This document shows positions 2,979 through 64,000 of a stretch of DNA of 64,000 nt, piece after piece; position 1 is the first letter of the stretch, and each line of letters starts with the position of its first letter. Under the pieces are notes generated by a model. The model was given only the letters and a program-made list of their open reading frames with translations. It ran no database searches and was not told the DNA's origin. The DNA is taken from contig JAULBX010002445.1 of assembly GCA_032358255.1 (NCBI GenBank), positions 1 to 64,000 on the forward strand. The letters are read 5' to 3'. The translations under genes were made by a program, and so were the position numbers. The stretch is from Heterotrichella gracilis. Lineage: Eukaryota; Sar; Xanthophyceae; Tribonematales; Xanthonemataceae.

Positions 2979-5900
2979 ATGGTGGTGGTGACCTCCCCAC
3001 CCGGGCGCTTGACTTCCAACCCCTTGGCTAGCCACAGCGGATGCGCCATGCCATCACGCGCCACGCCATGCAATATGCGCCAGCCAGGAACCAGCCGCCT
3101 CGTCACCCGGCCGCGGTTGGGGCAGGTAATGCACGGTCAGAGAAGAACCCTACGAGGGTTTGGAAGGTCACAGCGCCTGGCTGTTTGTGGCGACTCTACC
3201 CCGCTCCCCCTGGCAGTGGCGCCCAGGCCTAAGCCCAGCAAACCCTCCAAAACCCTAACCGCCCCCAATCAGAGCGGCCTGCTTCCCAAACCCTTGGACG
3301 CGGTGCCAAGAGCTCTGGGCGAGGGTGCAGCCCTGGGAGAAACCCTAGAAGGGTTCCCCATGCCGTGGGGCGATGCACAGTTGACCTATGCTCGCCTCCT
3401 GGAGGAGTCAAGGGGGGTATTGCGCAGTGGTGGCGGTGGGGATGGCGTGCACGACAAAACCCACCAGCTGGTCCCCAAGGGGGTGGGGGTGGCGACGCTG
3501 GTCCCCACCGCTGCCACAGGGGCAGCCACAGCCGCACTCCCCACCACCACAGCCACAGCCACCCTCGACTGGCGGCAGCTCATCGGCTCGCTGGACAGCT
3601 CCCCAGCCAGGGACAGCACGCAATGCGAGGAGGAGTGCGCGGGAGGGTTCTGGGAGGAGTATGTTGAACGCCTCCCGGGGCCCCTCCCAGTCGCCACATC
3701 CACATCAGCATCCACATCATCAGCGCCGGAATCGCGGTCCTCCGGCGGGCAGCGGCCGCCGGGCGCGGCGGCGGTGGAGACACATGGCGGCGGGGGGCGG
3801 GATGCGCATGCCGCGGCGGCGGCGCTCGGCGGCGGGGGTCCCGATGCGGCGCACGGGGGCGGCGGCGTTGCGCGGGAGGCGCACATTGGGGAGCGGCGCA
3901 TCTCGCACTACGGCACCAGCACCTCTGAAGCCCTGGCTGCCAACGCCGCCATGCCGCCGTCGGCCAAGGTGGGTGGTGGAAATAGAAACGGTGGAGACCA
4001 CCTGGCATGATGCACCTTGCTTCAGTGTGATTATGAAAACATGTGGGAATGAATGCGCGCTAAATGCATGTGGCATTTCGCTAGCTGGCTGCATAAACCT
4101 ACCTACCCATGACCTTGGTGGGGTTTAGGTGTGCGCCCAACCCCTACTGCCCCTGTCAAGGGTTCTCTTCAGGGAGCGTTCTAGTCCCGAACCCTTGTGC
4201 TCGGATGTCCCCCATCAAGATCAACCCTCCATTATCTTTGTGCAGGTTTTGCCGGTATATACTACCACCACCCGAGAGGCGCTGCTGGCGCACGCCATTG
4301 GCCAGCTGCCGACGGGTGTGCCAGCTGGCAGCCTGCTAGAGGGCTGCACCTTCTCGCCCAAGGGGATCACACGGTGAGGGTTTGCTAGGGTTTTGTGGTA
4401 GGGCTTTTCACTAGGGTGTGTGCGCCCTCACGCCCAAGGGGATCATACGGTGAGGGTTTGCTAGGGTTTTGTGGTGGGGTTTTAAGCGAGGGTGTGTGCG
4501 CCTTCACACCCAAGGGGATCACATGGGGAGGGTTGGGGGGGAACGTAGCTAGGGTTTGTGCGGTAGGGTGGTGGAGGGGTGCAAGTCATACATTGAGGGG
4601 TTGAGAGGTGGAATGCATGTAACGTGTTGTGACTGTTGTATGGCTGTGACAATGGTGTTGTCACTGGTTATGCAATAAATTGACCACCTGCATTTAAACT
4701 CATTAAATTTAAAATCAACGAGTGACTACAGCTGCCTGCGCAAAGATCCTAAGCCTCTCCCCTACCCTTCCACCCAGCCTGCTCTCCCTCCTCGCACACG
4801 AGCGCGCGCTCGAGCGAGCCATCGAGGCATTCTACTGGCTCAGATCCCAGGGGCCTGATTGCGCGCTGCGCTCCGACTGCGTGCCCTACACCCGCCTCAT
4901 GTCCATGCTGGCAAAGAGCAAGCGCCACAGGGGGGTCGCCGCCCAGGTGTGGGATGCCATGAAAGAAGACGGGGTGGAAGGGGACGCGGTGTGCTACAAC
5001 ACAGCCATCTACGCAACAGGTGAGGGATGGGTCTGCTCCCCAAAGGTTTGAGGGCTGGGCTAGCCGTTCTTATATTGAGTGTGCATCACTACAACTAGTA
5101 TAATCACTACAATTGCACAGTGATATAATCACTACAAGTAAAGTGGTGATGTAAATGTTCAAACAATCAAAGGCATTGCGCATGTTTCCTCATGACCCCT
5201 TTGACAAATTCCAAGCATGACTCGTTGTGTGCAGGCCGGGCCGGGATGTGGGATCGCACCCAGGCCATCCATGCAGAAATGCGCTCCCGCGGCTTCCCCT
5301 CCGATGTCTTCACCTTTTCCTCGCTCATCACCGCATGCCAGGCCTGTGGCAGGTGGAGGGAGGCGCTGGAGGTGCTGGGGGACATGGAGGCGCAAGGTGG
5401 GGTGGTGTGGGGGGGGGGGAGGAAGGGGGTGTGAGGTTCAAGGTAGGGGTGGAGGGAGGCGCTGGGGTGCTTGGGGATATAGAGGCTCAAGGTGAGGTGG
5501 GGGTGGGGGTGGGGGGGAGAGGTGCTGGAGGTGCTTTGGGGATATGGAGGCGCAGGATGTGTGTGTCTAGGGGAGAGGGATTGGGGCACAGGGTGGTGGT
5601 GTGGGATGGGTTGAGGGGGAGGTGGAGGGAGGCGCTGGAGGTGCTGGAGACCCTTGGGGACATGGGTTCAAAGGGTATAGGGTTGGGGGTGTGCTAAGGG
5701 GGGTGGGCCGAGGGAGAGCGCATAGGTAACACTGCAGCAGTTGAGGCAGTCACCACATTGGATTGAATGCTGTACAACTGCACCACGGGGGCATAATCTC
5801 ATCAAGGGATGCAACGCCCAGATCCGCACCCAGATGCACAGGCGCGCGCACCAGCAAAACTCTAACCCAGGGTTTTCACCCCCTCCCGCAGGCGTCACCC

Positions 5901-8257
5901 CTAATGTGGTTGTCTACACTTCGCTCATCACGGTGTGTGGGCGGGCGGGGGAGTGGCAGCGCGCACTGGGTGTGCTCCAACTCATGGAGGGTGCGGGGCT
6001 GAAAGCGGATTGCGTGGCCTACAATGCAGCCATCAGTGCGTGCGGCAAGGGGGGCAACTGGGAGAAGGCGTGGGCGGTGTTCCAAGGTGGGTGCGTGGAT
6101 GGGGTGGGTGCAGGGGAGGGACGAGGTGTGGGTGGTGGTGCTGGGTGGGGTGTGTGTGGGGGGGGTACATGCGCAGTTTGCATTGACTGTCGTATGGGCT
6201 TTTGGGGATTGTGCGTATACTTGCACCTGGGGGCGTGTGCGGCAAGGGGATCGACTGGGAGAAGGCGTGTGGTGTTCCAAGGTGGGTGGTGAGGTGGGTG
6301 AAGGGGATGAGGGAGATGGTGGAGGTGTTGGCGGTGTTCCTAACCAGTGTCCTCTTTCCCCACAGCCATGCGGCGCGCCGGCATCCAGCCAAGCACCGTG
6401 TCCTACAACGCCCTCATATCGGCATGCGAGCGCTGCGGGCAGTGGCAGCGGGCACTGGAGGCGTTCTCAATGATGCAGCGGGACGCGGGGAGGGCGTGGG
6501 GCTTTGCAAAGCCAAATGCCGTGACATACAACACGCTCATTTCGGCGTGCGGCAAGGCTGGCAGGTGCGTGTGGGTGGGTGGGGGGTGGAGAGGGGGGCA
6601 GTGGATGGGTGAGGCGGCTCAGCGCCTAGGGGCCTATTTCAACCGCACAGATTACAGCCCCGCCAAAACGCGGCTCAAAGCAGGGGCCCATCCAGGGATT
6701 CCTGAAACCCTCCCAAAACCCTCTCCACAGGTATGAGGAGGCCACCGAGATGTACTCCGAGATGCAGCAGGGGGGCATCATAGGCGACGTCATCACATTG
6801 AGCGCCCTCATCACCGCGTGTGACAAGGCGGGCCAGTGGCGGGAGGCCCTCAGCCTGTTTGATCAGTTCCAGGATGCGGGCGTGAGGGCCAACACCATTG
6901 TGTACAACACCCTCATCAACGCCCTAGGGTCCTGGGGCCAGTGCGACGAGGTGAGGGTTCAGCTAGGGTTTTAAGCAGGGTACAGGCAAGATTCTAGGCA
7001 GGATTAAGGGTGTGCATGGCATCGCTATCATTTACAACACCCTGATCAACGCCCTAGGGTCCTGGGGCCAGTGCGACGAGGTGAGGGCGTAGGCAGGGTT
7101 TAGCTAGGGTTTAGGGTGTGCAGGCTAACACGGTTGTGTACAACATTCTGATCACCACGCTAGGGTCTTGGGGTCAGTGTGACGAGGTGAGGGTTTAGCA
7201 TCTGGCCGTCTGAATCAGACGGTCTGATCATGGCAAATCGTATTCATGTGCCGAAATGCCCACCCTTGCCCAATGCATCCCCACCTCACAATCCCGCCCC
7301 CAAAATTCACCCCACCCCCTAACCATCGCAGGCACTCGCTGTCTTCCACGGCATGCCTCCCGGCTCGCCCCGCGACGTCATCACATACGCTTGCGCCATC
7401 AGCGCCTGCGAGCGGGCGGGGCGCTGGGAGGAGGCGCTTGCATTGTTGGACCACATGCGCGCGGCAGGGGTAGCTGGCAATGGATATACCTATGCTGCTG
7501 TGTTGGGGGCGTGTGAGAAGGGCGGGCAGTGGGAGCGGGCCATCCAGGTGTTCAAGTCCATGGAGGTGGGTGGGGGTGGGGGAGGGTGGAGGCTTGTCCA
7601 TGTGTTCAGGTGCATGCAGTTAGTGGTGAGGTGGGTGGTACAGTGGGGTTTTGGAGTGGCTGGCAAGTGGTGCGCTTGCGCTGTGGTGCTGGGGTGTGGG
7701 AGGCTTGTGAGAGCACCATCCAGGCTTTCAGGTCCATGGAGGTGGTGGGGGAGAGGTTGTACAGATGTATGCGATACTAGAAATGTTATGGACTCATTGA
7801 CAATGGTGTTGGATATCTAACACTGAGACCTGCCAGCCCCTGCATCCTGGGGGCCCACGTCCTAAACCCTAGAACCCCACAGGAGCTTGACGGCTTTGAA
7901 ATGGATGGGCTCATGCTTGCTGTGTGTAGTGTAACCTAGACCCTAAACCCTAAACTCACCCTTGCCGGAGATTGACAGCGTCCAGATGGATGGGGTGATG
8001 CTTGCTATGTTTTAGGGTAACCCTCAACCCTAAGTTATAAACCCGAACTCTTCACTCCGCCCCCGCAGGAGCTTGACAGCGTGCAGATGGATGGCCTCAT
8101 GCTGGCTGTGCGGCGCCTCATGTACATTTCTCCCGGCCTCATCAACGTCATGCCGCGCCCCCTGCTGCAAGCGGCGCGCGTGGCGGTGGATTCGGGGCGG
8201 GCCGCGCGCCGCTGGATCGACCGATCAAAGGCCGAGGGCGGGGGCGAGGAGGGGTGA
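2979..8257 (+). CDS. P-class pentatricopeptide repeat protein, probably organellar
   Basis: Proposed exons are 2979-3968, 4246-4373, 4778-5019, 5235-5396, 5892-6086, 6366-6564, 6731-6950, 7332-7565 and 8069-8257, all GT-AG and in phase, giving about 852 residues. The first ~330 residues are basic and then low-complexity, consistent with a transit peptide and linker; an ATG opens this exon at 2979. From exon 3 onward about eleven 35-residue PPR motifs run almost without gaps, with typical cores such as VTYNTLISACGKAG and VYTSLITVCGRAG. P-class PPR proteins bind organellar RNA and control its stability, processing or translation. The RNA target cannot be read here. No E, DYW or SMR tail is visible after the repeats. 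Six of its eight introns contain decayed copies of the adjoining exon edge. Confidence 0.88.
4344..4534 (+). repeat. Exon-edge echo array, PPR intron 2
   Basis: The last ~30 bases of exon 2 plus its donor (4344-4384) recur at 4421-4460 and 4497-4534, a regular 76-bp period. The first echo keeps the GTGAGGGTTT donor context; the third is weaker. CTAGGG/TTTTG heptamer-like sequence separates the units. Confidence 0.85.
5353..5680 (+). repeat. Exon-edge echo array, PPR intron 4
   Basis: The end of exon 4 (5353-5403) is followed by three imperfect copies at about 5448-5500, 5521-5556 and 5620-5680. Each keeps a GGCGCTGGAGGTGCT-like core; the first echo also keeps the CAAGGTG donor junction. Confidence 0.75.
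6893..7194 (+). repeat. Exon-edge echo array, PPR intron 7
   Basis: The end of exon 7 with its donor (6893-6957) is copied at 7026-7087 and 7129-7194, offsets of 130 and 106 bp. About 50 bases of the first echo are almost identical to the exon, including the GACGAG/GTGAGG junction. TTTAGGG-like sequence lies between units. Confidence 0.88.
7879..8112 (+). repeat. Exon-edge echo array, PPR intron 8 acceptor side
   Basis: The beginning of the last exon (8067-8112) is preceded by two decayed copies at 7879-7925 and 7967-8010, periods of about 88 and 100 bp. They are separated by CCCTAAACCCTAAAC runs. The first copy keeps a CCACAG acceptor; in the second the CAG is lost. Confidence 0.85.
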
Positions 8258-17991: not shown

Positions 17992-18027
17992 GGTTGAACA
18001 AGGAAACAGCGAGAACAGAGCTCTCAA

Positions 18028-24257: not shown

Positions 24258-24262
24258 TGTAA
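24258..24262 (+). terminator. TGTAA polyadenylation-type motif
   Basis: This lies about 230 nt beyond the F-box/propeller stop codon and is the likely cleavage signal for that transcript. Confidence 0.4.
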
Positions 24263-25690: not shown

Positions 25691-25709
25691 CCTGGGCCAC
25701 GTGTTTCAC

Positions 25710-35500: not shown

Positions 35501-38500
35501 CACTTGACACAGCCAAGCAGGCAACATGGAAACGCAGCATGCACACCAAACTCATCACCGTTCCAAATCAATGCAACAGGCGCGGAAGACGATGACGATG
35601 CCTATGGCGCGGCGGCGGCCTACGGCAGCCAGCTGGCACACGTGCGCCCCGGGGACGGCGCCATCTCCGATGCCTCCAACGACGAGAACCCCTCCCCTGT
35701 CAAGGGCCTAGTCAGCAGCAGGGATGAGCGGGAGGCGGCCGCGTTTGGAGCCGCGGCCACCGCTGCGGTTGCCAGCAGTGAGGTGCCTGTGTTTGACCCG
35801 CGAGGGGGGCAGTCGTACGTGTACAGCCAGAGGGGAGGGGTGGCCACGCCGCCGGAGTCGCCGCTGACCGGAGGTGGGTGCTGACCCTGAACCCTAAACC
35901 CTAAACCTTAAAACACTAACCCTAATCGAGGCGCCGCAATGCCACCCTGCCTAAAACCCTAATAGTTGCATAAAACCCTCTTGCAGGCTGCCCTTAGATG
36001 GGCAGCACCTCCCAGACCTCAAAACCACATTACCTTACAGGCAGCACCACCCTACAACCCTGCGACCCCATGAACATAAACCCTTACCCTGCCCAAGCCG
36101 TACCCCGGGTAACCCTCAACCTGATCCTTGACCCTACACCCTGCACCCCACCCCCTTGCAGGCAGCACGTGCTCACAGCCTAAAACCCTGACACCCTACC
36201 CCTTCCCACCCTTGCCCAAAACCCTGAACCCTACTTCCCCCCTGCAGGCAGCACCGGCGGGCAGATGGGCAGCGTGGCCCCCCAGCCGCCCCCCAGCACC
36301 GGCGCAGCCTTCGGGGTGGGCCTGGCCGCGGGTGCGGTGGGGGCTGGGGGGGTGGCTGCGGCTGTGGCGCTCAGCCGGGATGAAGATACACCCAGTCCCA
36401 GGGATCCGGACCCCGAGGCCTATGCGCGAAATTTGGATGAGGCGTTTGAGACGGCGGGGTCGGATGATTACCCCGTGCCGCGCGCGTACAGGTCACCGGA
36501 TCTGGATGAGCTGTGAGTGGGTGGGGTGGGGTGGGGGTAGGGGGGCGTGAAGGGGGAGGGGGGTGAGCACCTGCCTTGCTGGCGTGTGGGAGGTGGTGGT
36601 AATGGTGGGGGGTTGATGGGTGGGTGGTGTTGTTGATGGCGGTGGTTGAGAAAAGGGATGTCCTGGCGTGCAGATTGCTGGATTGGTTGAGCTGTGAGTG
36701 AGTGGGGATGGGGATGTGGGGGGCTGGCGGCGGTGGTGGTGGTGGCTGGGAAGGGGGTTCTCAGGTTCTTTGACGAACCCTGGCAGTGGTGGGGAAGAGG
36801 GATTGTAGCCGACGACCCCAACCACAGCCCCACACCACCTCGCAATCCCTATAACGACCCTCTGAGGGCGCGCAAACCCTAAACCCCAACGCTAAACCAC
36901 AGAGCTGACCCTAAAACCCACGCTTACAGGTCCTTCGACAACGACCACTCTGAGGGCGCCGCCGACCGCAAGTTCGGCAAGGCCCTGCGCACTCCCTTCA
37001 ACGCCGCAGCCGCCCCGCCAAACCTCCTGCCCACCGATGCCAATGTCGATGCCGAGGGCAACGGCAACGGCGATCTGGGGACCACACCGGGGGGCATGTC
37101 TTCCATGAATGGGAGTCAATCTGAGGCGCTGACAGGTCCTGCTAATGACTACTCGTTCAAGGCGTCCCGGCCCAGCATGGCGGACAAGGTGGGGGTAATG
37201 GGAGTGTTTCATTTATAAGAATATATTTGGCAGGTTTTTGGGTATGATTTTGGCCCTGCAGGCCAAGTTTGGCTGACAAAGTTGGTGTGTGGAGTGGGGT
37301 GGGCGGTCATTTGTCAAGCAAAAGTGTGAAAAAATCTTCTCACCATTGTGCATGCGCCCCCAGCCACCACCCTTCCATCCCTCCCCCCTCCCACCCACCA
37401 CCGCCTGACACATCTCTCACTCACCACTCCCCACTCCCTCAGGCCACCTCCGCCTCCATCCTGGCCAGCCTGGACGCGCTTCGAGGGGCGGGGGCCGCAT
37501 CGGGCGCCTCCATGGATGATGTGGATGACAAGCTGGAAGTGGATCCCGGGCTGATTGATGCACTCATCAGGGAGCTGCGCACCGCGGCGGCTCTGGAGGT
37601 GGGTGGTGTGGTGGCGGTATTGCTGGTGGTCCTGATGGCGGGAGGGGGTGTGGGGTGAGGGGTGGGTATGTGGATCGCATCCATGTGTGATGTTGATGAC
37701 AAGCTGGAGGTGGATTTGGGGCTGATTGATGCACACATCAGGGAGCTGCGAATTGCGGCAGTGCTGGAGGTGGGTAGCGATGGTGGTTTTGGAAGTGGTG
37801 GGGTGGGTGGTGAGTGTTGAGTGGGCAGTGTAAGGTGGCTGCAGCTCCAAGGCATGCGACGAGCTGGTTGTGGTTTTGCAGCTCGTGCCACACCACCACC
37901 GCCACCGCCGCATCCATCTCAGAGTCATGGGTGGAAGCTTACTTTTCCGTTGTTGGAAGCCACAATAACAGTTCCAAAACTTCATGCTCCAGCGCGTGAA
38001 AAACAGAAAGCCAAAATACCTCACTAACTTTCATCCCCTCGTTCCCCGCAGTCCGCCGTCTACCTCGGCCGCGCCGCCAAGGGCCGCAGCGGTGTTGAGT
38101 TCCAGGCCAACGCCCGCCGCACGCACACGCCTGCGCGCCGCATTGCGCGCACTACTATCTGCATGGGGCCGGAGGAGGGCGCGCAGTTTGGGCTGAGGGC
38201 GGTGCGAGCGCTGCAGGCGGCGGCGGACGGGTGGGTGACGGGATGGTGGTGGCGGGGGGGTGGGGGGCGAGATGGTGGTGTAGGGCTGTATTTTTGCACA
38301 TGGCTGACACTCCAGCTTGCTACCTTTAGGTTGAAGGGTGTCGGTGTATGGTTCCCGCACATGCCCTACCCTTGCGCATCTATTCAGGCAGTGTGGGCTG
38401 AGGGCAGTGCGCTCGCTACAGGCGGCGGCGGACGGGTGGGGGCTGGGGTTGGGTGGTGGCTGAGGGGTGGTGTGTGTGTGGGGGGGGGGCGGTCTGGCTG

Positions 38501-41319
38501 CATGTCCGCACATGGCCTGGCGATCCAGCATGATACCCTTGGGCACTCGTTCACGCCACTTTCCACCATGTGTCCCACCCGCTCAAACTCATCCAACGCA
38601 TGGCCTCCTGGTGGCTCTAGAATGCAGTATGAGAAGCCAAGTAAGCATTTTAAAGTAAGAATCTCTTGCCACCCCCCTCTTAGTACCACCCACCAACTCA
38701 CCACCCCACCTCACCCCCACAGGTGCGCCAAGCACGTGCAGGGCATGGCCTTCTGGTGGTCCAATAGCATGCAGCTGAGGTGGATGCTGTGGGCAATGTC
38801 GCGCGCGGGTTCAATGGTCAGCGCACTACCTGACACCCCAGACACTGCAACCACAGAGGCCTCGGGCTTTGATGAGTTCGACTGGGCGGTGCAGGTGCGG
38901 TGTTGGGGGTGTTGGGGGTGGTGTTGGTGGTGGAGGTGGAGATATATGCAGCCTGCGTGGCGGCGAGATGCGTGTTTAAACCTGCATGTTCAAACAGTTC
39001 TTCTATCTGATAGTATTGGCTGTGCTGCTACGCAAGTATTGCGCAATGTGGGAATGGATGCACACAAACGTCATCCCAGCGCTGTCCACCCCATGCACCT
39101 CCCCACAACCCCAACCCCAACCTACTTGTCTGCAGGCGCTGGTCCCCGGCCTGCGGGGCGGCGAGTCCTACATCTTTGACCGCATGTTCAAGTTCCTGTG
39201 GTTTGAGGTGCTGCTGCGCACAGTGACCAGCAGGGAGCTGTCGATACCCTCATCACCGGGGAGGTCCATGGTGGCGCCGGTAAGGGGTGGCTGATGTGTA
39301 GCCGTTTTCATATCGAACGCCGGTGCCCAGCAAGAGGATTTTTAATATTCAGGGATTATAAAGTTTGAGATATATGTGAAATCAAAGTTTAAAGTATTTC
39401 TTTCATATTTTCTGGCAGGGCTTCGCTGTGCCCAGCAGGAGGAGGCAGTGCTGCCCAGCTTTATTGGTAACTGATTAATAGTAATTAAATCGGTTATGAG
39501 TATATTATCATTTATTCTCTCGCAGGGCTCCGCCAGCGCCCAGCAGGAGGAGGCAGTGCTGCGCTGGCTGGCTGGCTTGAGGGCGGTGCACCAGGAGCTG
39601 GGGGGGGGAGCATCCACCCCCTCCATACCCCTGCAGCACGCCAAGTTCCTCACGCTCCAAATGCTGACAGCCATCGTGCGCAAGGTGGATGCGGTGCTGT
39701 TTGAGAGGCTGCTGGCGGGTGAGTGGTGGTGGTGGTGGTTGGTGGGTTTAAAAGGTGTTGGTGGTGGTTTTTTTTGGGGGGCCATCCACACCCTCAGGGC
39801 CCCTGTAGCGTCATTGTGCGCAAGGTGGATGCGGTGGTGTTTGAGAGGCTGCTGGCGGGTGAGTGGTGGTGGCGGTGGTGATGGGTGGTGGGGGGTGAAT
39901 GGCGGGGGAGGGGTGGTGTAATGATGGCGCAGGCGCGGCCAGCACCCCCCATATCACAACCATCCACACACCCACTGCCCATACCCGTCCGTGCAAGTTA
40001 ACACCCCCCCCTCATCCCCCACCCGCAGTCAGCGACGGCTCCCACAACCCGCACAACTTCTTCTCATCCCGCCCGTGGTCGGGGTCGCCCTATGGGGGCG
40101 GGGGCGCCGCCAGCAACCCCTACAACACCGCGGTCAGCGGGGCGGCCATCGACACCGCGGTTCTCCCCTTTGCCACCGGGCCCCTGACTTTTGGCACGGG
40201 GATTCAGCTGAAGATGGCGCTGACCAAGTGGACCAACTGGGCTGCGGACGCGGGGCTGACGGAGGAGAGCGCGGCCAAGACGGGGTGCGTGGTGGTGGTG
40301 GTGGTGGTGTTAAAAAGCGCAGCATATGCAGCAGCATCGTACATCAACACTCAGGATGGCGCCAGACAAAATCCCGCATGCAGCCTTCTTCATACACCAT
40401 TTCCTTTCACCCACCTACCTGCGGCGACGCCCTGCACCCCCCACCACCCACTCCTCCACCACGCTTATTCCACGCCTCATCCCACACCCTCATCCCACTC
40501 CCTGTTCCTAGACCTGGTCATGATGCCCAAGGAGGCCCAAGGGGGAAAAAAACCTTTATAAAACCCCGAGCGCGGTTTCCTTTCCTGCTGAACCCCGCAC
40601 CCCCCTCCTGCAGGTACTCCCTGTTCCCCAAGCTGCGCGCCTCCTCCGACCTGCTCATGATGCCAAAGGAGGTCCTCACAGACCCCACCATCCGCGCCGA
40701 TGTGGTACCCGGCCTGTCAGTCAACCGCATCTGCCACATTCTGGAGCGGTTCCAGCCTGACGAGTACGCGCCGGCCAAGATACCCACAGGTGGGTGGTGG
40801 TGTGGGGGTGGGGTTGCGACTGTGCTGCATGATGGCATGGTTGTGCAGTCAAAGTCATCCACAGGTGGTATGTGGGGTGTTAGAGGTTCTGAGCCTGTCA
40901 GGTCAATTGCTCTGCCCCTGGTCCTGGTCCACCTGACTGCGCACCTGTTGAACCCTGAGGATAGTGCAACTCCAACCACCACCTCTCCCCTTACGAGACG
41001 TGATTGCGCACCTCCCAAACTCCACCCACCCACCCTCCATCAATTCCCTGCCCCCCTATTTGCAGACCTGCTGCGCATCCTGCGCCAGGCCGCCTCTGAG
41101 AGCGGCGAGCCCCCCTCGGACGACTACGACGAGAAATACACCGCGGTCAGCGAGGGGCACCTGCTGTCCCGGGGACTCATCGAGCCGGTCAGCCTGGAAA
41201 TGGATGAGGAGAGTGATGAAGAGCTGGAAGGCCTGGCTGAGATGTATAATACTGACCCTGCAAGGGATGGAGCGTACAGGTTTCTGCTGCTCAAAGAGCT
41301 GTGGGCCAGCGCTCGGTGA
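32570..41319 (+). CDS. Large protein with N-terminal NT-C2 and C-terminal DIL-like domain
   Basis: Fifteen exons (32570-32803, 33058-33299, 33604-33686, 34250-35299, 35580-35873, 36248-36512, 36930-37188, 37443-37598, 38052-38230, 38723-38894, 39136-39279, 39526-39718, 40029-40284, 40614-40789, 41066-41319) are all in phase, giving about 1318 residues. Residues 1-160 match the EEIG1/EHBP1-type NT-C2 fold (FNYYIHIHSL, LGTVVINLADFA, GEVEMVISLG). A long acidic, Ala/Gly-rich disordered region follows. The C-terminal ~450 residues resemble a DIL domain (FWWSNSMQLRWMLW, YIFDRMFKFLWFEVLL, LSVNRICHILERFQPDEYAP). NT-C2 and DIL domains occur in membrane-cytoskeleton and myosin-linked trafficking proteins; the role here is inferred. 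Its introns are rich in exon-edge echoes. Confidence 0.85.
34050..34280 (+). repeat. Exon-edge echo array, NT-C2/DIL exon 4 acceptor
   Basis: The acceptor and first bases of exon 4 (GCTGCAG then AGCCAGACAGGA, at 34240-34265) are preceded by three decayed copies near 34051, 34099 and 34175. They are separated by CCTAAACC-type tracts, with spacing of about 50-75 bp. Confidence 0.78.
35975..36275 (+). repeat. Exon-edge echo array, NT-C2/DIL exon 6 acceptor
   Basis: The TGCAGGCAGCACC acceptor start of exon 6 (36243 onward) recurs upstream near 35983, 36036 and 36157, each within CCCTAAAACCCT-like DNA. Confidence 0.8.
37505..37783 (+). repeat. Exon-edge echo, NT-C2/DIL intron 8
   Basis: The last ~94 bases of exon 8 plus donor (37505-37610) are copied at 37677-37783. 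The copy keeps GATGACAAGCTGGAGGTGGA and the GAGGTGGGT donor junction but has several substitutions, and it remains an open frame over most of its length. Confidence 0.88.
39414..39885 (+). repeat. Exon-edge echoes on both sides of NT-C2/DIL exon 12
   Basis: The start of exon 12 (39519-39565) has an upstream copy at 39414-39460 sharing CCCAGCAGGAGGAGGCAGTG. The end of exon 12 (39672-39735) has a downstream copy at 39805-39885 sharing GCGCAAGGTGGATGCGGTG and the GCGGGTGAGT donor. One exon is thus flanked by echoes of both its edges. Confidence 0.87.
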
Positions 41320-42300: not shown

Positions 42301-43750
42301 ATGCTGCTCTCTTGCCACCTCAACAAGGCAGCTTTGCCCAGAAACGCCGTGCAGCTGCGTACTGGTCGCCCATCGAGCAGGCTATCGGCCAGCTACTCCC
42401 GTCCAGTTGCGGGTCGCGGCTCGGTCCGGGTGCATGCTTCAGCCGTTTCGGAGGTGCGTAATTTCACTGGCTGTACTTCCAAGGTCACTGATAGCAACGG
42501 GATTTACCGGTGCCTGAAGTGTGGATTTAACCACTTGTGCTGTGGCTGTACGCTGGGAGGGCTGTTGTGTGCTTTAGCTATTGTGGGGCCGCGCAAGAGT
42601 GATGACTGATTGCCCACCTAATGAAGCATCCATATGCATATGGTAAAACAGATACAGGACAAGGTATGCCCTTTCCCCGCAGGTTGGCAAGTACCTAGCT
42701 GAAGCAGCCTCCCAGATATTCAGCGACACCAAGTCCGACGTGCCCTGGGAGGCCACCACCACGCCCTTCACGGGACCAGTCACCCACCACGAGGACTTGG
42801 CTCGCCTTCAGGAGCTCTACAGCATCGTGCAAACCACAAAGGTGGGGGTAGTTCAAAGCCCAAAACTGCCACCGTTTGCCTCTAAACCACTGGCAAACGA
42901 AAGCTTATGCTTTTAGAACTTCGTTGCTTTTTTCCTTTGTATAAACGGTGCAAGGTCCTGCATGTTATGCCTTGGAGGTGGGTTTCTGACGCTGGTTTTG
43001 TCACAGGCCCGCCTGGGCTGCACAGACCCGGAGGCAGTCAACTATGATGCCAATGCGGTCGCTGACGATGGCTCCTGTGAGTTCATGCCTGATGAGGCGG
43101 TGCTGCGGAAGGAGGGCATCGCTGGGTATTTGACTGGGGCGGTGCAGAAGGTGTTTGGCAGCAACTTCAAGAACGCTGACGCTGGCAAGGGCGAGGAGGT
43201 GCAGTGGCCGGCCAGCAACTTTGACGGGGATATTTTGAGGAACCAGAGGGAGATCGTGCGCCTGGTGAGTGCCCCACATGCGCTAACACCTCCTGTATAG
43301 CTAGTCACCACTGCCCAGCTTGCTTATCAACCCTCCTTCTGTACTACAACCCTATGCCGTACATTCCAACCTGCTTGTGGTGGGCTCACTTTTCTACCTA
43401 GCCTGCTATTTCCCCTGGTCAAGCTATGCCTCTTGTGTGTGATATGCACCCTCACGTGTACTCTTGTATCAGCAGCGCACTGTGTGACCCTCAGCTCTGA
43501 CATCGTGTGATGCTGATACAATTTACAAGTGCGAGTGCCATAAATACACACAACAGGCCTTGCTTGGCCACGAGAAGAGCAGGCTAGGTAGGTAGCGACG
43601 TGAGCCCTAAACCCTAAACCCTAAACCCACCATTCCAGCTCCAAATTCCCAGCTTTGAAAGCTTGCTGTCAACCCAACGTGCTTTAATTCCTGCTGCAGC
43701 TCCACTTTGAGAGGGTGGTAAAGCAGACGATTGACCAGGCTAAGAAGTGA
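42301..43750 (+). CDS. Plastid-targeted protein of unknown function with a GCTDPEAVNYD motif
   Basis: Exons 42301-42453, 42683-42841, 43007-43264 and 43700-43750 join in phase to about 206 residues. The first ~50 residues are rich in Ser, Arg and Ala with almost no acids, ending near VRVHASAV, a typical algal chloroplast transit peptide. The mature part contains YLAEAASQIFSDTKSD, then GCTDPEAVNYDANAV followed by DDGSCEF, then QWPASNFDGDILRNQREIVR. The GCTDxxAxNYxxxAxxDDGSC pattern is familiar from many bacterial and algal extracellular proteins but its function is not clear. No enzyme family is recognised. Intron 3 includes a run of three CCCTAAA heptamers near 43608. Confidence 0.75.
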
Positions 43751-45258: not shown

Positions 45259-48200
45259 CTAGCTCCCCACCGCCTCGGCCCGCGCGCCCCCCTGGGGGTA
45301 CATGTCCGCCAAGGCCTCTGCCAGCGACCGGGGTTCAAACCCCAGGTCAGCCCTCAACCTGCTGATATCCATCGAGATATCTGGCGGGCTGGCGTAGGAG
45401 CGCTGCACCGAGGAGCCGGGTACTGACAGGATGTTGGACTCATCGCAGTGCAGCGCTTGGGCCACGATTTGCGCCATGTCCACCCTGCTGAGCCGCTGCG
45501 GGCCGCCCATGTTGAGCACCCTGCGAGGGGCAGGAAGAAGTGTCAAGGCAGGATCAGTGTCTGGCCATCCATTCTTCATTTCATTTATTCCCAACATCTA
45601 CCAAGCTGGGTACGAACAGGATATTGAAATGGTCGCAGTGCAGTGCCTGAGCCACAATTGAGCCATGTCCACCCTGCTGAGCCGCTGCGGGCCACCCATG
45701 TTCGGCACCCTGCGGGGGTACAAGGGTGCATAAGCCAGGATTTCGCCCTTTCTTCCTTTCCATTTGACTATTTTCTTGTGCCTTCCTGAAACATTACAAT
45801 GAATAATACCAGACGCAGCTTGTTCTCCCCTCCCACATGTCCCTCACGTAGATTGGGTATCAAAACTCTTTTTAAAACCAGGCTACTTTCAATCATTTAC
45901 AGTGTAAATTTTGCACATTATAATTCATTTTCTTAGAAGATACTTCCCGTCACCCCACCTGGGCGGCACCTCGCTCCCTGCAGCCTCAATGATGCGCTCA
46001 ATGATCAACAGGATGTCCTTCACGTAGATGGGGCACCATCCCTCACTGTTAACTCAGGGCTAATTTAACTTCTTTGTACATTTTCTATGTTTTCACTCCA
46101 TTTTTGTTAGATGAAAATCCCTCCCCATCTCCCCACCTGTGCAGCACCTCGCTCCCCGCAGCCTCAATGATGCGCTCAATGATCAGCAGGATGTCCTTCA
46201 CATAGATGGAGCACCAGAAACCATGAAATCAGCTACTTCAATTTATTTGTTACAATCATTTCCAACATTTTCCTGATAATTTCCCCGTCTCCTCACCTGT
46301 GCGGCACCTCGCTCCCCGCAGCCTCAATGATGCGCTCAATGATCAGCAGGATGTCCTTCACATAGATGGGGCACCGGAACTCGTCGTTGAAGAAGGTGGT
46401 TGGCTTCTTGGCCGCCAGCGAGTTTTCGATGAACTGCAGGAAAAGAGGGCGCGACACCGGCACGTAGGACTGCGGCCCGTAGATGATGGAGGAGCGCAGG
46501 ATGATGTGGTTGGGCCACCGCTCCTGCAAGGGGTTTCAGGGTTGGGGTTGGGGTTTGGGATTAGGGTCAGTATTTGACATTTAGGGTTTGGTGGTGCTGA
46601 TGATGTGGGGCCACCGCTCCTCCCGGGAAGGTAGCATTTGGGGTTCAGGTTTGTGCGGAACGTGCAGCATTGCTGATGTGATTGGGCCAGCGCTGCTGCG
46701 GAGTGTGGGGGTAGGTCTTGGTGTGGGACTTGGGGTGTAGGGTTTGTGTCCTGCCTGCCAAACAAGCTGGTGTATGCAAGCTCTCCTGTGGTGTGCATAG
46801 GGTGGCAAGCTTGGTACTAGACAGTATAAACAGTGGTAATTAGCCATTGCGCAGATCGTAATCATGGTGTCCTTTGCGATCGATGGTGGGTTACCAATCG
46901 TATGAATGCATGACCCGCAAGCTTGTCATGTAGCTGATGATTGGCACTGATGTGCACATGCATCAGTCATCAGCCACGGTGTGCTACGGAAGCATTTTGC
47001 CCCCGGCCCTATGCTGCAAGTCACCATGAGCCCTAGACGCATGACCCTAAACCCTAACCTGGATCCCCACCTCCGCCTCATACTTGGTTTGGCCTCTAAA
47101 CTGCACGGAACCCTATACCCTATACCCTAAATCCTAAACCCTTACCTGGATCTCCACCTCCGCCTCATACTTGGTTTGACCATACGCATTGACCGGCTCG
47201 ATGGGGTCATCCTCGCGCCAGTTGGCCTTGCTGCCGTCGTACACCTGCATACAAATGATTTGCTGAGATGCATTGCATGCACTCCAACAGAATGCATCAG
47301 TTCAAGCAGAACAGATGGATGCGCTTTCAGCTTGCAAAAGACGCGCCAACCAGCTCTATCTACACATTGCATTGCATGCGCCGTTGTCGATCTTGCTGGG
47401 TCAAGATCCAGACCCTTTTTTGTCCAGGCAGCGACGTAGTCGGTGTTAGGGTCAATATATGGGGTTAGGGCTTAGACTGTACAACCCGCGCGTACGTGGT
47501 CCGTTGACAGCTGCCCCAGCAGCGGCTCCTGGGTGGTGTTCAGGGTCTGAATTTAGGGTTTGCATCTTAGGGTTAAGGGTCGGCAGTACAACCCGTTCAT
47601 ACCTGGTCTGTTGACAACTGCACCAGCAGCGGCTCCTGCCTGGTAATTTAGGGTTTGCGAAGTAGGGTTTAGGGTCAGCAATACAACCCGTGCGTACCTG
47701 GTCCGTCGACAGCTGCACCAGTAGCGGCTCCTGGTTGGTGTTCCGGGTCTGGATTTAGGGTTTGCATCTTAGGGTTTAGGGTCGGCAGTACAACCTGTTC
47801 ATACCTGGTCTGTTGACAGCTGCACCAACCGCGGCTCCTGCCTGGTAATTTAGGGTTTGCGAATTAGGGTTTAGGGTCGGCAGAAGAACCCGCGCCCACC
47901 TGGTCCGTCGACAGCTGCACCAGCAGCGGCTCCTGGTTGGTGGCAGCCTGGTGCGTCTCCAGGGCGTTGATCAGCATGCTGGGGACGTTCAGTTTCCTGG
48001 GGATAGGAAGCGGCAGCATGTCAGTCCCAGGAAAAGCTCAAGGGCAAGGTGTCCATGGTAAGTGACCACCAGGGGGACAAATGCATCTGAGTGTCGGGTG
48101 GAGGCAATCTTCGACCATGCAAGCACGGGTACGCGAAACCTCCTGCGCTGGGAAGGCGCTGCCGCGGCCGTGCTTTGATGGTGTGGGTAAGGAGCGGGCA

Positions 48201-50044: not shown

Positions 50045-53000
50045 ATGCAGGTGAGCTCCCCGGTTTATTGCAAAGTGGGTGCCATCCCACATGGTTGAGT
50101 GTGTATAAAGGGACTTTCGACCGTTGTTGGGCTACCTGCATGCACTGCAAGTACCAATGATTTCTAAAGTACGCATAAACCAGGCTCAGGCTGAACCAAG
50201 TGCGTTGTGTGCACGTCTAGGTTAGCCCCTTCCTGCCGGTGGATGCTGCCTGCACCTGCTTTGAAGGCTTCATAGAGTCCCAGGTAAGGTGCCTGGTCCA
50301 CCACAACCTTGTTGGGCAGCGCCGAGTACCCTGCAACATCTCCCTAAACCACCGTGTTGCCATCTTGTTCTATGATACTCGGCACTCCTGCCCACCTCAC
50401 CAGCCATCGCCACAAAGTGCCCGCCAGCAAGTCCTACAACCCAACAACCTGCAGCGGGGGCACTGCAGGTGCCGTCCAGCAAGTCCTACAACCCTAAACC
50501 CTGAATCCTGAACTCTAAACCCTTGCGCCCGTTGCAGGTGCCTGCCAGCAAGTCCTACAACCTGTGGGTGCAGGTCTCCAACGTGTCCAACCACAAGCAC
50601 CCGCTGCGCAGCGCACAACTTGCCTTCAGCCCGCAGCTTGCTGAGCTGGTCAAGGTACGCGGTGCACTTGTTAAAATACTTGCTTGTATGGGGTCAGGGC
50701 ACTACTTGTATGGGGTCAGGGCACTACTTGTATGGGGTCAGGGCACTAAAATGGTCAGTGCTGAACCCCATCGTGTCGCTCGGCAATACAAGTGGTCTTG
50801 TAGGCCGCGTCTCTTAGTCACGAGAGGTCACCCAATGCAGTATTAGAATAGAGAAAAGGAAACGAACTCTTAGATTGGGTTTCAAAGTCCACTTATGTCC
50901 CCCCTTGCCCAGGGCCAGGAGGGGTTCCTCCTACTCTGCTGCAGCGAGAGCGCCTCCCTTGATGCCTTCCACCAGGAGCTGCAGAACCTGGTGGATGGAC
51001 TGCTCATGGCAAAAGGGTACGCCTCAAAACCCTAGGGTATAGGCATAGCCACGCCTACCACAACACACTCCATCCTACCTCCGTGTGTAAGCCATCCAGA
51101 TTAATAGCAGAACAACACCCCCACCACCACCTCTGTGTGTAAGCCATCAGGCGGAATAGTAGAAGATTTTATGTTTGTATTGCTTGCACACGGCCATCAA
51201 GAGATATTGCCTTACAGAATCCCCAATGCATTCCGGATCCTGCAACGGCCAAAACAACTCATTGACAAGGGGGGAGCGTAGCATAGGGGAGATATCAATA
51301 CCGTAGTTTCCATCAGAGATTGTCGTACTTCTGTTCAAAATCCTGCGCAGGGGCGACAGCGGTGCCAGCAGCAGCGGATTGTATGAGGAGCTGGTGCATC
51401 AGCTGGATGGCGTGGGGTGGGGGGCGGTGACCTGGATCCAACCCGACCTGCGCCACATGACAATCAGCATACAGGACTCGCATGGTGCGGCCAAACCCTA
51501 AACCCTAAACCCCATGCCCATGTGATCTAGCCGCAACCATGCTTTTCCTCGTCTCCGTCACCCCTCGAGGGACTTGCAGCGTGTGACGATACAAGGGGTT
51601 GGGGCAGGGGTGCACTGATGTAATAACATTAGTGCATTAGTATACCCCTAGTTGGGGTGCCATGCTTTCCATGTGCACCCACATGGCTTCACCCAGGCAC
51701 CCATTTTAAGTTACCGCGCCTCCCCTGTGTGCCAGGTGTGAGCCACGAGGTGCATGTGCGCCTGCCACCTGGCTACCCCTCCAGGCCCCCAGCCGTCACC
51801 GCAGACCTGCCTTCTGAGCTGCACCTGCGCGGAGCATCGCACACCTCCTTGGCGGAAACCCTGCAGCACTGCAGGTACCAACAACCCATACATGTGATCC
51901 ATTGCATGCAATAAGAACGTATTTCCAGCCCCTTTGATGCCAGATTGGCATGCCTGGGTATGCCTCACCCCAATCCCATTGCATGCTATGCACAACATAA
52001 ACCATGCTCTACATAACATGAACCCTTTGTAATGCCTACCCTGCAGGGACGCCATCGAGCAGTTCCAGGACTACTGGCGCTGCATGCAGCAGCTGTACTC
52101 CTGCGCCTGGGTGGTTGACCCCCCCTCCTTCACCCGCGCAGCCACGTCGCTCACCCTGCTGGTCCAGGGGAGCGTGAAGGCCATGCTGGTGTTTGACCCG
52201 CACAAGCCATACGCCGTACCGCAGGTGTGAACCCTACACCCAAACCCTACACCCAAACCCTACCTTAGGTGCTGAACCCGAATCCTAACATGAAGACCCT
52301 GCCCCAGATAATCCCCCTAGACACAAACCCTGCACCCTGCCCCAGGCTGACCAGGAGTGATCAAGAACATCTCCACGGTTTACAGTAGCAACACCCATGG
52401 GTGCACCATAACCCTAAATCCTACCCTGATGTCGGATCCTGAATGTTAGACCCTGCATGCAATGTCAAGTTCCCATGCACTGCCAGCTCCCCAATACCAA
52501 GATCACCCACGTTTTTCTTCATTGTGATTTGTCCCATCACTTTTTGTATCATTGTTCTTATATATTCTTTTCAGGTCACGCTGTTTGGTCCCGAGCAGCA
52601 GGCGGCAGAGCTGCAACAAGTGCTGCAGCGCAACCTCAGGCAGTGGAGTGAGGACAGGTGGGTATGTGGGGGTGGCGGCATGCGCAGTGCGTGCGGGGGG
52701 GGGTTAAAATGACACGGTTGATGCTCTTCTTGGTAACGATGCTGGCGATCCTTCTTCCTCAGATGACGGTGCTGATGATCCTCCTTCCCTGATGCGGATT
52801 AGTGACACCCCTCCTCCCCCGCCCCCCTGCCCAGATCCCAGCTTGTCAACCTGGAAGCGATGCCAATCACTGACTTTCCTCCTCCCTCTGATGCTGATTA
52901 CTTACAATCTTCTTCCCACGGTGCTTAGATCCCCGCTAGACAACCTCGAGGCACTGTTTGGCCTGGCCCTGCCAGCCCGCCCTGCACTGGATGACCTAGC

Positions 53001-53915: not shown

Positions 53916-54035
53916 CCATACGGGTGGGGGCAATGCCAATAAGCTGCGACACCCTCCCTTAGGGTTTTTCACAACGACAATGCATGGAGAGACCTTGCAT
54001 CCGCGGGGGCGCAGGGACCATACGGGCCATTTATG
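53886..54035 (+). repeat. Echo of the FANCL stop-codon region
   Basis: The last coding bases and stop of FANCL (53886-53930, with GCGGGGGCACAGTGACCATA) are duplicated downstream at about 53990-54035 with the stop lost. This is the only echo found at a gene end rather than at a splice junction. Confidence 0.72.
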
Positions 54036-56628: not shown

Positions 56629-60724
<4,096 letters not shown>

Positions 60725-61808: not shown

Positions 61809-64000
61809 CTATGCGCCCATTCTAGCCATCTCCACCAGTTTCTGCCGCAAGCCCTGCACCACGTGCCCCCGGGTGATGCGCACCAGATTGGCGGGTTTCC
61901 CGTCCACCGCCCCCTCCAGCCGCAGCCACTGGGGCGCACACTCGGCCAGCATCTCCAGTGCTGCGCGCCCCTCCTCAAAGCTGATGCTCTGCTGCAGGCT
62001 GTGCTGCAGGTGGGAGATGACCTGCGGAGGTAATGAATATATTTGTTAGTGTTTTTATACATATTTCATCAGTATTAGATTCTAAATCAATTTTGTGTGC
62101 ACCTCCTAGGGGCTGATGCTCTGCTGCAGAGGGAAGATGACGTGCAAGTATATGGGGATTACAGCATGAATATGTAATATTAATTGGCCGAATTTATCTA
62201 CAAATTGGGAGAGCATGGCATTAGATATCAGTCCAACAATCGATGCAGGCTGTGCTGCGGGTGAGCGGCGAGAAAGAGCTCCAGCAGGCACAATGGACAC
62301 TGTGGGATGGAGCAGATCGCACTATACGGTTCAAACCCTCTCAGAAACCTAGCCAGAGGGGCGACCGCGTTGCATTGCATTAGGGTAACCTTGAGAACCC
62401 TAGCCACCCAGGACCTTACCGTGCCGATGGGCTTGACCACAGGCCCGCTGGTTCCAAAGGTGGAGCGCACTATGTCAAAGTAGCGGGGGAGCTGGGCCCT
62501 GGCGTGGCTTCTTGTGCGCTTCTCCTTGGCTTCCTGGCTGTGCATGTCGTGGTGGAGCACCTGGGGGAAAACATAAAAAGGATTAAAACTGTAGTCGTTT
62601 TGGATTATATGAATGGTGCGCCGCTCCTTCTGGGTGTGTATGTCCTTGGGTGCATTGAATGCAAGCCGGCGCTTGGCCTGATTCAAGCAGATGCAGAGGC
62701 GCCAGCATTGCAGGATTCAAGGGTGAGCTATAGGACAGGAACACCCAGTAGGATATGGACCGTTCCACCTGGGAGTTCCCAATGTTTACTCCACCCTTTG
62801 GTGGGCTTTTTCCGTCACTTATTGTGATGATTGAAGTACCTGGTTGCGTTGGAGGAAAGCCAGCGATTGGCCGGAGCCAAGGAGGTCTAGCAGCTGACTG
62901 GATGGGTGGGAGGCAGGCAAGGGAGTCTGGCTCGTGCTTGGCTGGCTGGTGGTGGTGGCTGTTGCTCCTGCTGCTGCTGCTGGTGCTGGTGCTGGTGCTG
63001 GTGGTAATGGGAGGGTGTTGAGGCAAAGGGGTGCGAGGGTGGTTTGGCGGCGGTGGGGGGCGGGTGGGGCGGGGAGGGGCGCTTGCGGGATGGGTGGGAG
63101 GGCGGCGAGGGAGAATCCCGGGTGGAGTTGTAGGGGTAGCGAAGAGGGGGAGTTCCCTTGGCACTCGGGTGGGGATGGCAGGCTGTTGTCGATCAGATAC
63201 TGCCTGTGCAAAGAGGCAAATGTATAACAAATTAACAAATAAATTGGAGTGTAACTTTGTACATTTATCACTCTCCCTGTATTGTATATGACCACTGGGT
63301 CACTGTTCACTGGCAGGATTGGCAGGCTGCTGTCGACCAGGAATTGCATGCGCCAGGGGGAAACATCATAGGCTGAGGTCTCTCAGGAGGGAGGTGTTTC
63401 CGGACATGGCGCAGACGCACATGGGAGTTGAGGGTTAGGGGTCAGGGTTTCAAGTTGCATGGTGCAGGTCCCTAGAGCCCGCCATTCTTGTATCATGCCA
63501 TGACACAATTAACCTAAGGGAGAGCAACCCCTAGCAAAACCCTACCTGTAGTGTGTGGCCACCTGCACTTCCAGCGCCTCCCGCAATTTCTGCTCCAGCC
63601 CACCCCCCGTGGCCTCCTGGCCTCCCTCAAGGGAGTGAACACACACGATCAACTGGGGAGGGCAGGATGACGCCTCGCACGTCACCCCCGGCCTCCCTGC
63701 TTTCTTTAATTGTGCACCCCCTGGGGTGAGCTCCACTGACAGCACGCCTGGCAGCAGGTGTAGTAGCTGCGCCAGTTGGCTTTTCTGCAGACAAATGGAG
63801 GGTGGCGTTAGTGGCTTTGAATAATGGGTACCCGCCGCGGCTAGATGGGGCATTTGAGCCGGGGCTAGGGTGGGTGCGATAGGGCGGCTGCATGGTATAG
63901 ATGGTGCAGTGATGCGACGGTGTCAATGGTATAATGATGAAGTGGCAATGGGATGGCGCAGATTCTGGTTTTGTGTGGTGCCGATGCTATTTCACCTGGA
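61809..64000 (-). CDS. CDT1 replication licensing factor, C-terminal part (5' end outside window)
   Basis: Visible exons, in order, are a 5-base edge at 64000-63996, then 63784-63546, 63203-62840, 62560-62420 and 62021-61809; all complete junctions are in phase. The first large exon contains a winged-helix segment (KSQLAQLLHLLPGVLSVELT, EQKLREALEVQVATHYR). The second is Pro/Ala-rich linker, the third has LPRYFDIVRSTFGTSGP, and the last has a C-terminal MCM-binding winged helix (AALEMLAECAPQWLRLEG, LVRITRGHVVQGLRQKL). CDT1 loads MCM2-7 onto origins with ORC and CDC6 in G1. The geminin/PIP-degron region would lie beyond the right edge. The assignment rests on domain order, as sequence conservation is modest. 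Confidence 0.78.
63160..63352 (-). repeat. Exon-edge echo, CDT1 linker exon acceptor
   Basis: The start of the exon at 63203 (encoding QYLIDNSLPSPP) has a copy at 63299-63351 that would read QFLVDSSLPILP. The copy lies in the preceding intron and lacks a clear acceptor. Confidence 0.82.

What the first reader, a model, noticed from the sequence alone, without database searches (positions are those of the whole stretch)
2979..64000. Window-wide exon-edge echoes: introns contain tandem, decaying copies of the adjoining exon boundary
Seen directly: in at least seven unrelated genes (PPR, F-box/propeller, NT-C2/DIL, reductase, FANCL, SerRS, CDT1) introns carry one to four direct copies of 20-95 bases of the neighbouring exon edge plus its splice site, spaced about 65-180 bp. 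Donor-side echoes lie downstream of the real exon end, and acceptor-side echoes lie upstream of the real exon start. Divergence ranges from near-identical to barely recognisable, implying continuing birth and decay. Inference: tandem duplication across exon-intron junctions is a main route of intron growth in this genome and supplies a stock of decoy or alternative splice sites. I know of no description of such a pervasive pattern in algae.
Basis: partly seen in the sequence, partly recalled or inferred. Interest (0 to 1): 0.88.

Follow-up and report, generated by a model that had tools for sequence, protein, structure and literature searches.

The report
Exon-edge copies with telomere-like filler
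In this green alga about one in five to six of the introns examined carries decaying direct copies of the neighbouring exon edge, and the DNA between the copies is rich in the cell's own telomere repeat, which suggests that scars of DNA break repair lengthen its introns.

Summary
With a gene finder trained on 314 kb of this 68.5 Mb genome, 61 of 324 introns (18 of 65 in the window, 43 of 259 elsewhere) hold a significant direct copy of their own exon edge; reverse-complement and reversed controls give 1-3 of 324 per side. The copies are direct tandem duplications, mostly 60-220 bp apart, some in arrays.

Tandem units also cover about 2% of intergenic and intron-interior positions, against 3.5-5.7% of splice junctions; since selection holds the exon copy, special targeting of junctions is not shown. 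Detectable duplications add up to about 8% of intron DNA, so 'main route' is unproven. Echo donor sites decay as if neutral; echo acceptors lose AG faster than expected. They look like debris, not a kept stock of sites.

The new element is a telomere link. The telomere heptamer (TTTAGGG/CCCTAAA) tops the enriched 7-mers in the outer thirds of introns, clusters within about 40 nt of splice sites, and occurs in 19 of 33 spacers between exon edge and echo (matched expectation 4.7). Best explanation: break-repair tandem duplication with telomere-repeat filler, then decay.

The parts
4345..4572 (+). PPR gene: exon edge ending 4373 with donor, and two donor echoes (76-nt unit, three copies), spacers with TAGGGTTT-like sequence
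5378..5580 (+). PPR gene: donor edge at 5396 with echoes, first about 95 nt downstream
6878..7207 (+). PPR gene: three 94-nt copies of exon edge plus donor (6878, 7008, 7114); the gene finder reads the first and part of the third as exon
7875..8110 (+). PPR gene: acceptor-edge copies at 7875, 7960 and 8061; predicted exon starts 8069; CCCTAAA repeats between copies
34096..34267 (+). NT-C2/DIL gene: acceptor echo upstream of exon start 34250, spacer with CCCTAAA-type repeats
37505..37775 (+). NT-C2/DIL gene: two 100-nt copies, 85% identical, both with a donor; which copy is used is not settled
39672..39879 (+). NT-C2/DIL gene: two 68-nt donor-edge copies, 96% identical, 140 nt apart; which is used is not settled
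40511..40675 (+). NT-C2/DIL gene: acceptor-side copy, shift 137, 89% identical
45944..46379 (-). RmlD-type reductase gene: three 98-nt copies (88-95% identical to the reference copy)
47443..47941 (-). RmlD-type reductase gene: five 95-nt copies of a donor edge (at least three read as NQEPLLVQLSTDQ-like), separated by telomere-like repeats
50417..50572 (+). FANCL gene: acceptor-edge copies at 50417 and 50469 upstream of exon start 50538, CCCTAAA-type spacer
52828..52952 (+). FANCL gene: acceptor echo, shift 94, exon start 52929
58044..58162 (+). SerRS gene: acceptor echo, shift 83, exon start 58150
58226..58322 (+). SerRS gene: donor edge (exon end 58242) and donor echo 64 nt downstream
58465..58673 (+). 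SerRS gene: acceptor-edge copies, an older one near 58465-58500, one at 58533-58594 and the real edge (exon start 58639); the echo at 58557-58595 is weakly hit by SerRS homologues
43605..43625 (.). interstitial telomere tract CCCTAAA x3

Best explanation
The echoes are scars of small direct tandem duplications, mostly 60-220 bp apart, that arise throughout the non-coding part of this genome, most likely when a break with staggered ends is filled in on both sides and re-joined. Telomere-repeat DNA ends up between the two copies, added by telomerase or another telomere-linked activity at the free 3' ends before joining. When the unit spans a splice junction the gene survives, because the copy joined to the exon is still spliced; the other copy becomes intron and the intron grows. 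The exon copy is held by selection, so the pair stays recognisable longer than duplicates lying wholly in introns or intergenic DNA. The intronic copy decays, donor sites neutrally and acceptor sites with selection against a decoy AG upstream of the real one. Shown here: direct orientation, unit size, junction-centred profile, telomere motifs in the spacers, decay pattern. Inferred: the break, the fill-in and the source of the telomere repeats.
For: Direct only: 98 non-redundant local direct pairs, none in mononucleotide-shuffled sequence; 37 of them link exon or junction to intron (20 junction-intron, 14 exon-intron, 3 junction-junction). Inverted pairs: 10, none touching an exon. The similarity profile peaks from -20 to +10 of the junction and fades over about 60 nt into the exon and 20-30 nt into the intron, at both intron ends. 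Filler: 19 of 33 spacers (29 introns) hold a telomere heptamer, against 4.7 +- 2.0 in matched junction-adjacent segments of echo-free introns (p=0.0005, the least possible with 2000 draws); 14 of 23 outside the window. Spacer versus outer flank of up to the same length: 19 versus 9 of 33, discordant 12 to 2, p=0.013. Echo introns carry the motif more often: 35 observed, 29.1 +- 3.0 under within-gene permutation (p=0.037), 23.6 +- 3.3 within length classes (p=0.0004). TTTAGGG is this genome's telomere repeat (runs at the starts of contigs C70 and C140). GGGTTTAGGG occurs 17,790 times genome-wide, reversed control 465. Donor-like sites followed within 20 nt by GGGTTTAGGG give 239 matches and by CCCTAAACCC 174, reversed controls 0; about 48 each would be expected by independence (hand calculation). 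Published precedents, seen as passages: duplications with insertions from break repair in rice (PMC7407515), CST-Pol alpha fill-in of 3' overhangs making small tandem duplications (PMC8355091), telomerase proposed to add single motifs at free 3' ends (PMC3022908).
Against: Telomere orientation does not follow the simple two-ended model (G-type next to the left copy, C-type next to the right): by hand count, 9 of 14 donor spacers have G-type and 2 C-type, 7 of 19 acceptor spacers C-type and 3 G-type, without a left-right trend; selection on splice signals could produce this. In 14 of 28 echoes the intron part beside the splice site is also similar, as plain tandem duplication without filler would give. 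Echo-free introns too have telomere motifs near splice sites, so the motif may come first. In unassigned DNA only 4 of 21 spacers hold the motif. A loose acceptor pattern shows no strand bias genome-wide: CCCTAAACCC before YNCAGG 2,368 matches, GGGTTTAGGG before YNCAGG 2,182, though many of the latter are degenerate repeats ending TTCAGG. The synonymous excess (116 synonymous, 126 non-synonymous; 2 of 35 with a stop) is somewhat more than expected for a neutral echo plus a constrained exon. No break, nick or telomerase activity was observed.
Confidence: 0.58

Rival explanations
1. Replication slippage or unequal exchange: telomere-like G-rich tracts near splice sites are unstable, and the duplications form there during replication without a repaired break; telomere repeats are the cause, not filler.
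For: Telomere heptamers lie near splice sites even in echo-free introns; arrays of three to five copies exist, e.g. 47443-47941; intron flanks are similar in 14 of 28.
Against: Spacers hold the motif more often than outer flanks (12:2 discordant), whereas a duplicated pre-existing tract should appear on both; the exon side of the unit, where the other crossover would lie, has little telomere motif (0.2-0.5 heptamers per kb of exon).
Confidence: 0.25
2. Echoes are kept by selection as alternative or decoy splice sites or alternative exons.
For: Non-synonymous share 126 of 242 differences against 0.74 by site counts, and only 2 of 35 echoes with a stop.
Against: Donor GT retained in 14 of 20 (15.6 expected), acceptor AG in only 10 of 21 (16.0 expected); 20 of 68 shifts are multiples of three (hand count; 22.7 expected); a constrained exon copy alone lowers the non-synonymous share.
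Confidence: 0.07
3. Echoes mark introns born by Rogers-type tandem duplication of an AGGT-containing exon segment.
For: Three of 324 introns with donor/acceptor similarity score >=14 against 0.45 expected, one at >=16 against 0.05.
Against: None of 324 reaches 18; echoes copy one exon edge into an existing intron.
Confidence: 0.04
4. Introner-like mobile introns.
For: None found.
Against: Only 12 of 324 introns share any short stretch with introns of other genes, no hit over 70% of the shorter intron; 4 of 61 echo introns are among them.
Confidence: 0.02
5. Chance, low complexity or assembly artefact.
For: Part of the G-rich repeats in the window is low complexity.
Against: Controls near zero; copies span about 70-100% identity, which assembly errors would not give.
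Confidence: 0.02

Closest known systems
Tandem duplications from patch-mediated double-strand break repair in plants (Vaughn and Bennetzen 2014, seen only as summarised in PMC7407515; Schiml 2016 seen only as a reference in PMC8355091)
   Same: Short direct duplications, tandem or partly tandem, with insertions from within about 200 bp
   Different: Here seen most clearly at splice junctions, with the telomere repeat as filler
CST-guided Pol alpha-primase tandem duplications at 3' overhangs (PMC8355091, passages)
   Same: Small direct duplications from staggered breaks; uses a telomere complex
   Different: Shown in mouse and human cells at induced breaks; no telomere filler is described in the passages read
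[quoted passage not shown]
   Same: Same repeat; proposed origin by telomerase at free 3' ends
   Different: In Arabidopsis and rice introns 150.7 and 72 per Mb, not above the genome average; here 1115 per Mb in 324 introns, concentrated next to splice sites
[quoted passage not shown] PMC4974935, passages)
   Same: Tandem duplication interacting with splice sites
   Different: Here existing introns grow; no new intron is shown and the donor/acceptor similarity signature is nearly absent

Membership tests
Break-repair tandem duplication (patch-mediated or fill-in type) | Copies in direct orientation, close together | tested here: met
   98 direct versus 10 inverted pairs; 37 versus 0 involving exon and intron
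Break-repair tandem duplication (patch-mediated or fill-in type) | Extra DNA (filler) can lie between the copies | tested here: inconclusive
   Telomere heptamers in 19 of 33 spacers and 9 of 33 outer flanks; other filler cannot be told from old intron
Break-repair tandem duplication (patch-mediated or fill-in type) | Staggered break or paired nicks at the site | not testable with these tools
   needs experiments or mutation-accumulation lines
Interstitial telomere motifs | Motif identical to the organism's telomere repeat | tested here: met
   TTTAGGG runs at the starts of contigs C70 and C140; its rotations top the 7-mer lists in the outer thirds of introns
Interstitial telomere motifs | Made by telomerase at free 3' ends | not testable with these tools
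   proposal taken from PMC3022908
Rogers-type intron gain by tandem duplication | Sequence around the donor resembles sequence around the acceptor of the same intron | tested here: not met
   3 of 324 at score >=14 (0.45 expected), 1 at >=16, 0 at >=18
Rogers-type intron gain by tandem duplication | Intron absent from orthologues | not tested
   no close relative found (best SerRS hit 69%)
Introner elements | Families of similar introns in unrelated genes | tested here: not met
   12 of 324 introns with any cross-gene hit, none over 70% of the shorter intron; sample only

The most novel reading that the evidence does not exclude
Telomere machinery acting away from chromosome ends (telomerase, or CST with Pol alpha) is a standing motor of intron growth in this alga: breaks around splice junctions are repaired into exon-edge duplications with telomere-repeat filler, so that introns carry telomere tracts near their ends (G-type favoured in donor spacers, C-type near acceptors) and a series of exon-edge fossils of different ages.
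Probability: 0.27. Interest if true: 0.82.

Novelty: new variant of a known kind. Interest (0 to 1): 0.6.

Why it matters
How introns lengthen is often put down to transposons (general knowledge). Here another route leaves a readable record: exon edges supply a conserved reference copy against which decaying duplicates can be aged, and the telomere-repeat spacers point to the repair machinery. It makes the role of break repair in intron growth testable in one genome, and warns that gene finders will read some echoes as exons in such genomes (one search shows this for the reductase and PPR genes).

Tried and rejected
Targeting of junctions: 37 exon-to-intron pairs at 648 junctions (0.057; 0.035 if the 14 pairs that do not include the splice site are left out) against 0.023 (unassigned) and 0.024 (intron) per position (one search gives 0.059, 0.021, 0.022). 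After allowing roughly 1.7-2 times longer survival for a pair with one constrained copy (hand estimate) little excess is left, so I do not claim it. At least five of the 28 unassigned pairs lie in the unmodelled reductase gene, so the unassigned rate is an overestimate; one search repeats the counts with other models.

Two-ended telomerase model (G left, C right in each spacer): not seen. Templated insertion with snap-back: disfavoured for lack of inverted copies. Introners: disfavoured. Whole-intron tandem duplication (order A-B'-A'-B): not the order in L015 138-652, where it is A-A'-B'-B.

Short spacing: 0 of 37 junction pairs have shift under 60 against 20 of 52 elsewhere. Longer units span a junction more often; allowing for that by hand the p-value is about 0.007, so it is only a hint of selection against nearby decoys, with another method, does list shifts of 33 and 38.

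Full report
WHAT WAS TESTED. The window is C27:1-64000 of an unnamed 68.5 Mb, 903-contig genome. It appears to be a green alga without a close relative in the protein collection: the best hits to the window's SerRS are Micractinium and Chlorella at 67-69% identity, with many other chlorophytes at 60-68% (best 120 listed). I fetched 25 further stretches of 10 kb: one next to the window, the others placed around protein-kinase matches, so the sample is not random. Together with the window this is 314 kb, 0.46% of the genome.

GENE MODELS. No annotation exists, so I wrote a self-training gene finder, seeded with 31 kinase-domain exons placed and one window reading frame. It converged on clean splice signals ((C/A)AG|GT(G/A)AG and YYYGCAG|G) and 365 introns, median 287 nt. 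Products in the window agree with Pfam families SerRS, NT-C2, DIL, PPR, RmlD/epimerase, PNO1/KRR1-type KH and FANCL (some proteins were hand-trimmed of doubtful exons first). SerRS exons agree with tblastn of 11 homologues. Models remain ab initio; some genes are fused, and the reductase gene was missed in the first set. A second set with other settings gave the same main results.

THE ECHOES ARE REAL. For 324 introns of 80-1000 nt, 40-nt windows over the donor or acceptor edge were aligned to their own intron and compared with edges of other genes against the same intron. At p<=0.01, 30 donor edges and 38 acceptor edges match. Reverse-complement targets give 1 and 3, reversed targets 2 and 3, mid-exon windows 4 of 212, donor edge of the preceding exon 4 of 287. 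Either side: 61 of 324; window 18 of 65, others 43 of 259 in 15 of 25 loci. With exon-only queries at p<=0.005, 43 of 324 introns qualify. With the second gene models, 57 of 313, reverse-complement controls 1 and 3. Echo introns are longer (median 336 against 268 nt). Pattern searches over the whole genome also show like donors repeated 86-224 bp apart on other contigs: by hand count 16 of the 96 distinct donors among the 100 places listed of 174 (for example on C75, C125, C197, C211, C234), though only 2 of 99 in the list.

ANATOMY. Similarity peaks between -20 and +10 of the junction, fades over about 60 nt into the exon and 20-30 nt into the intron, and looks alike at donors and acceptors. 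In 14 of 28 echoes examined the intron flank is also similar beyond the splice consensus (p<=0.05); in others it is not, although the exon part is 90-91% identical (L015 138-652, L001 6497-7183). Local pairs are direct: 98 direct against 10 inverted; 37 of the direct and none of the inverted link exon or junction to intron. Donor-acceptor similarity within an intron, the mark of Rogers-type intron birth, is almost absent. Introns are hardly related across genes (12 of 324), so these are not introners.

HOW THEY DECAY. In 35 echoes the exon part differs by 116 synonymous and 126 non-synonymous changes; site counts alone would give 74% non-synonymous, and two have a stop. A neutral echo facing a constrained exon should give roughly 60% (my estimate, assuming an exon rate ratio near 0.1); the observed 52% is a little lower and unexplained. 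Echo donor sites keep GT in 14 of 20, as expected (15.6); echo acceptors keep AG in only 10 of 21 (16.0 expected, p=0.008). That fits decay, with selection against AGs upstream of the real acceptor, and speaks against a maintained stock of sites. Numbers are small.

NOT SHOWN TO BE SPECIFIC TO JUNCTIONS. Forty-nt windows with a local direct match (score >=20) are 7.6% at junctions, 4.0% inside introns, 2.5% inside exons, 2.4% in unassigned DNA and 1.6% in introns over 1 kb. Tandem units cover 2.3% of positions in unassigned plus long-intron DNA and 2.4% in short introns; junctions carry 37 pairs per 648 (5.7%), or 23 (3.5%) if only pairs that include the splice site are counted. One constrained copy prolongs recognisability by somewhat under a factor of two (my estimate), so a junction-directed mechanism is not needed. 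The summed shifts of junction and intron pairs, 5,658 and 2,405 bp, are about 8% of 99,449 bp of intron: a lower limit, since old duplications are invisible, but not proof of a main route.

THE TELOMERE LINK. Among 7-mers in the first and last thirds of introns, rotations of the telomere repeat are the most enriched (11-20 fold over shuffles for the commonest). They cluster by splice sites: 121 G-type and 99 C-type overlapping heptamer hits in the first 40 nt after donors, 179 C-type and 23 G-type in the last 40 nt before acceptors; bins of 20 nt further in hold 2-38 (from donors) or 1-46 (from acceptors) of either type. By intron, of 248 introns of at least 200 nt, 27 (G) and 19 (C) have one at donor +6 to +56, 6 and 9 in the middle 50 nt, 2 and 25 at acceptor -54 to -4 (similar). 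TTTAGGG runs open contigs C70 and C140, so this is very probably the cell's own telomere repeat. The octamer AAACCCTA on either strand reaches 1115 per Mb of intron, 428 per Mb of unassigned DNA and 153 per Mb of exon; a published survey gives 150.7 and 72 per Mb in Arabidopsis and rice introns (PMC3022908, passages read). Whole-genome counts agree for donors: 239 matches of a donor followed within 20 nt by GGGTTTAGGG and 174 by CCCTAAACCC, reversed controls 0 (a donor can match twice). A loose acceptor pattern gave 2,368 C-type and 2,182 G-type matches: this does not show the strand bias seen at predicted acceptors, but it also catches degenerate repeats ending TTCAGG.

THE LINK BETWEEN THE TWO. 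Spacers between exon edge and echo hold a telomere heptamer in 19 of 33 cases (29 introns), against 4.7 +- 2.0 for matched junction-adjacent segments of echo-free introns; outside the window 14 of 23. The outer flank of the echo, of up to the same length, holds one in 9 of 33, with 12 against 2 discordant pairs. The association of echo and motif persists within genes (35 against 29.1, p=0.037) and within length classes (p=0.0004). Pairs in unassigned DNA have 8.2 heptamers per kb in spacers against a background of 3.2, with only 4 of 21 spacers positive, so the link is not established there.

MECHANISM. Direct duplications of about 100 bp with other DNA between the copies are what staggered-break repair leaves. 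A review (PMC7407515, passages) summarises rice insertions as tandem or partly tandem duplications and insertions from within 200 bp of a break. PMC8355091 (passages) reports that telomere-linked CST with Pol alpha-primase fills 3' overhangs and makes small tandem duplications. PMC3022908 proposes that telomerase adds single motifs to free 3' ends. The same free 3' end would serve telomerase and CST, and this is the inference I commit to at 0.58. The side rule (9 of 14 donor spacers with G-type, 2 with C-type; 7 of 19 acceptor spacers with C-type, 3 with G-type; hand count) is not predicted by end-addition alone and may reflect splice-signal selection.

LITERATURE. Ten paper searches listed no paper whose title or abstract start names exon-edge copies in algal introns or telomere repeats at splice junctions. 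Several lists were cut (for example 10 of 936 papers). Passages were read in five papers. Most subscription papers are not held, so absence is weak evidence. Gao and Lynch 2009 and Hellsten 2011 were seen only as cited in PMC4974935; introners are recalled.

VERDICT. Tandem duplication across junctions is supported; 'main route', 'special pattern' and 'stock of sites' are not. The telomere-repeat spacers make it a new variant of a known kind.

Noticed in passing
G000 contig C1 (at least 886 kb): No GGGTTTAGGG in C1: the first 100 places listed all lie in C2, although the list goes by contig number and the donor pattern is listed in C1. C1 may be another organism, such as a bacterium in the culture.
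   Followed up: no
L001:6498-7183 (intron): The intron contains a tRNA-like stretch with a GATTCGAACC-type box, possibly a short interspersed element (by eye, sequence).
   Followed up: no
unassigned DNA of all loci: TGCATGC, CATGCAT and ATGCATG 7-mers are about 3-3.5 fold over shuffles.
   Followed up: no
window 47443-47941, minus strand: The gene finder strings echo copies together as in-frame micro-exons, so automatic annotation of such genomes may contain false repeats.
   Followed up: partly
L015:5040-5486 (coordinates on the reverse complement): The intron holds a further fragment resembling an inner part of the upstream exon, away from the junction copies (by eye).
   Followed up: no
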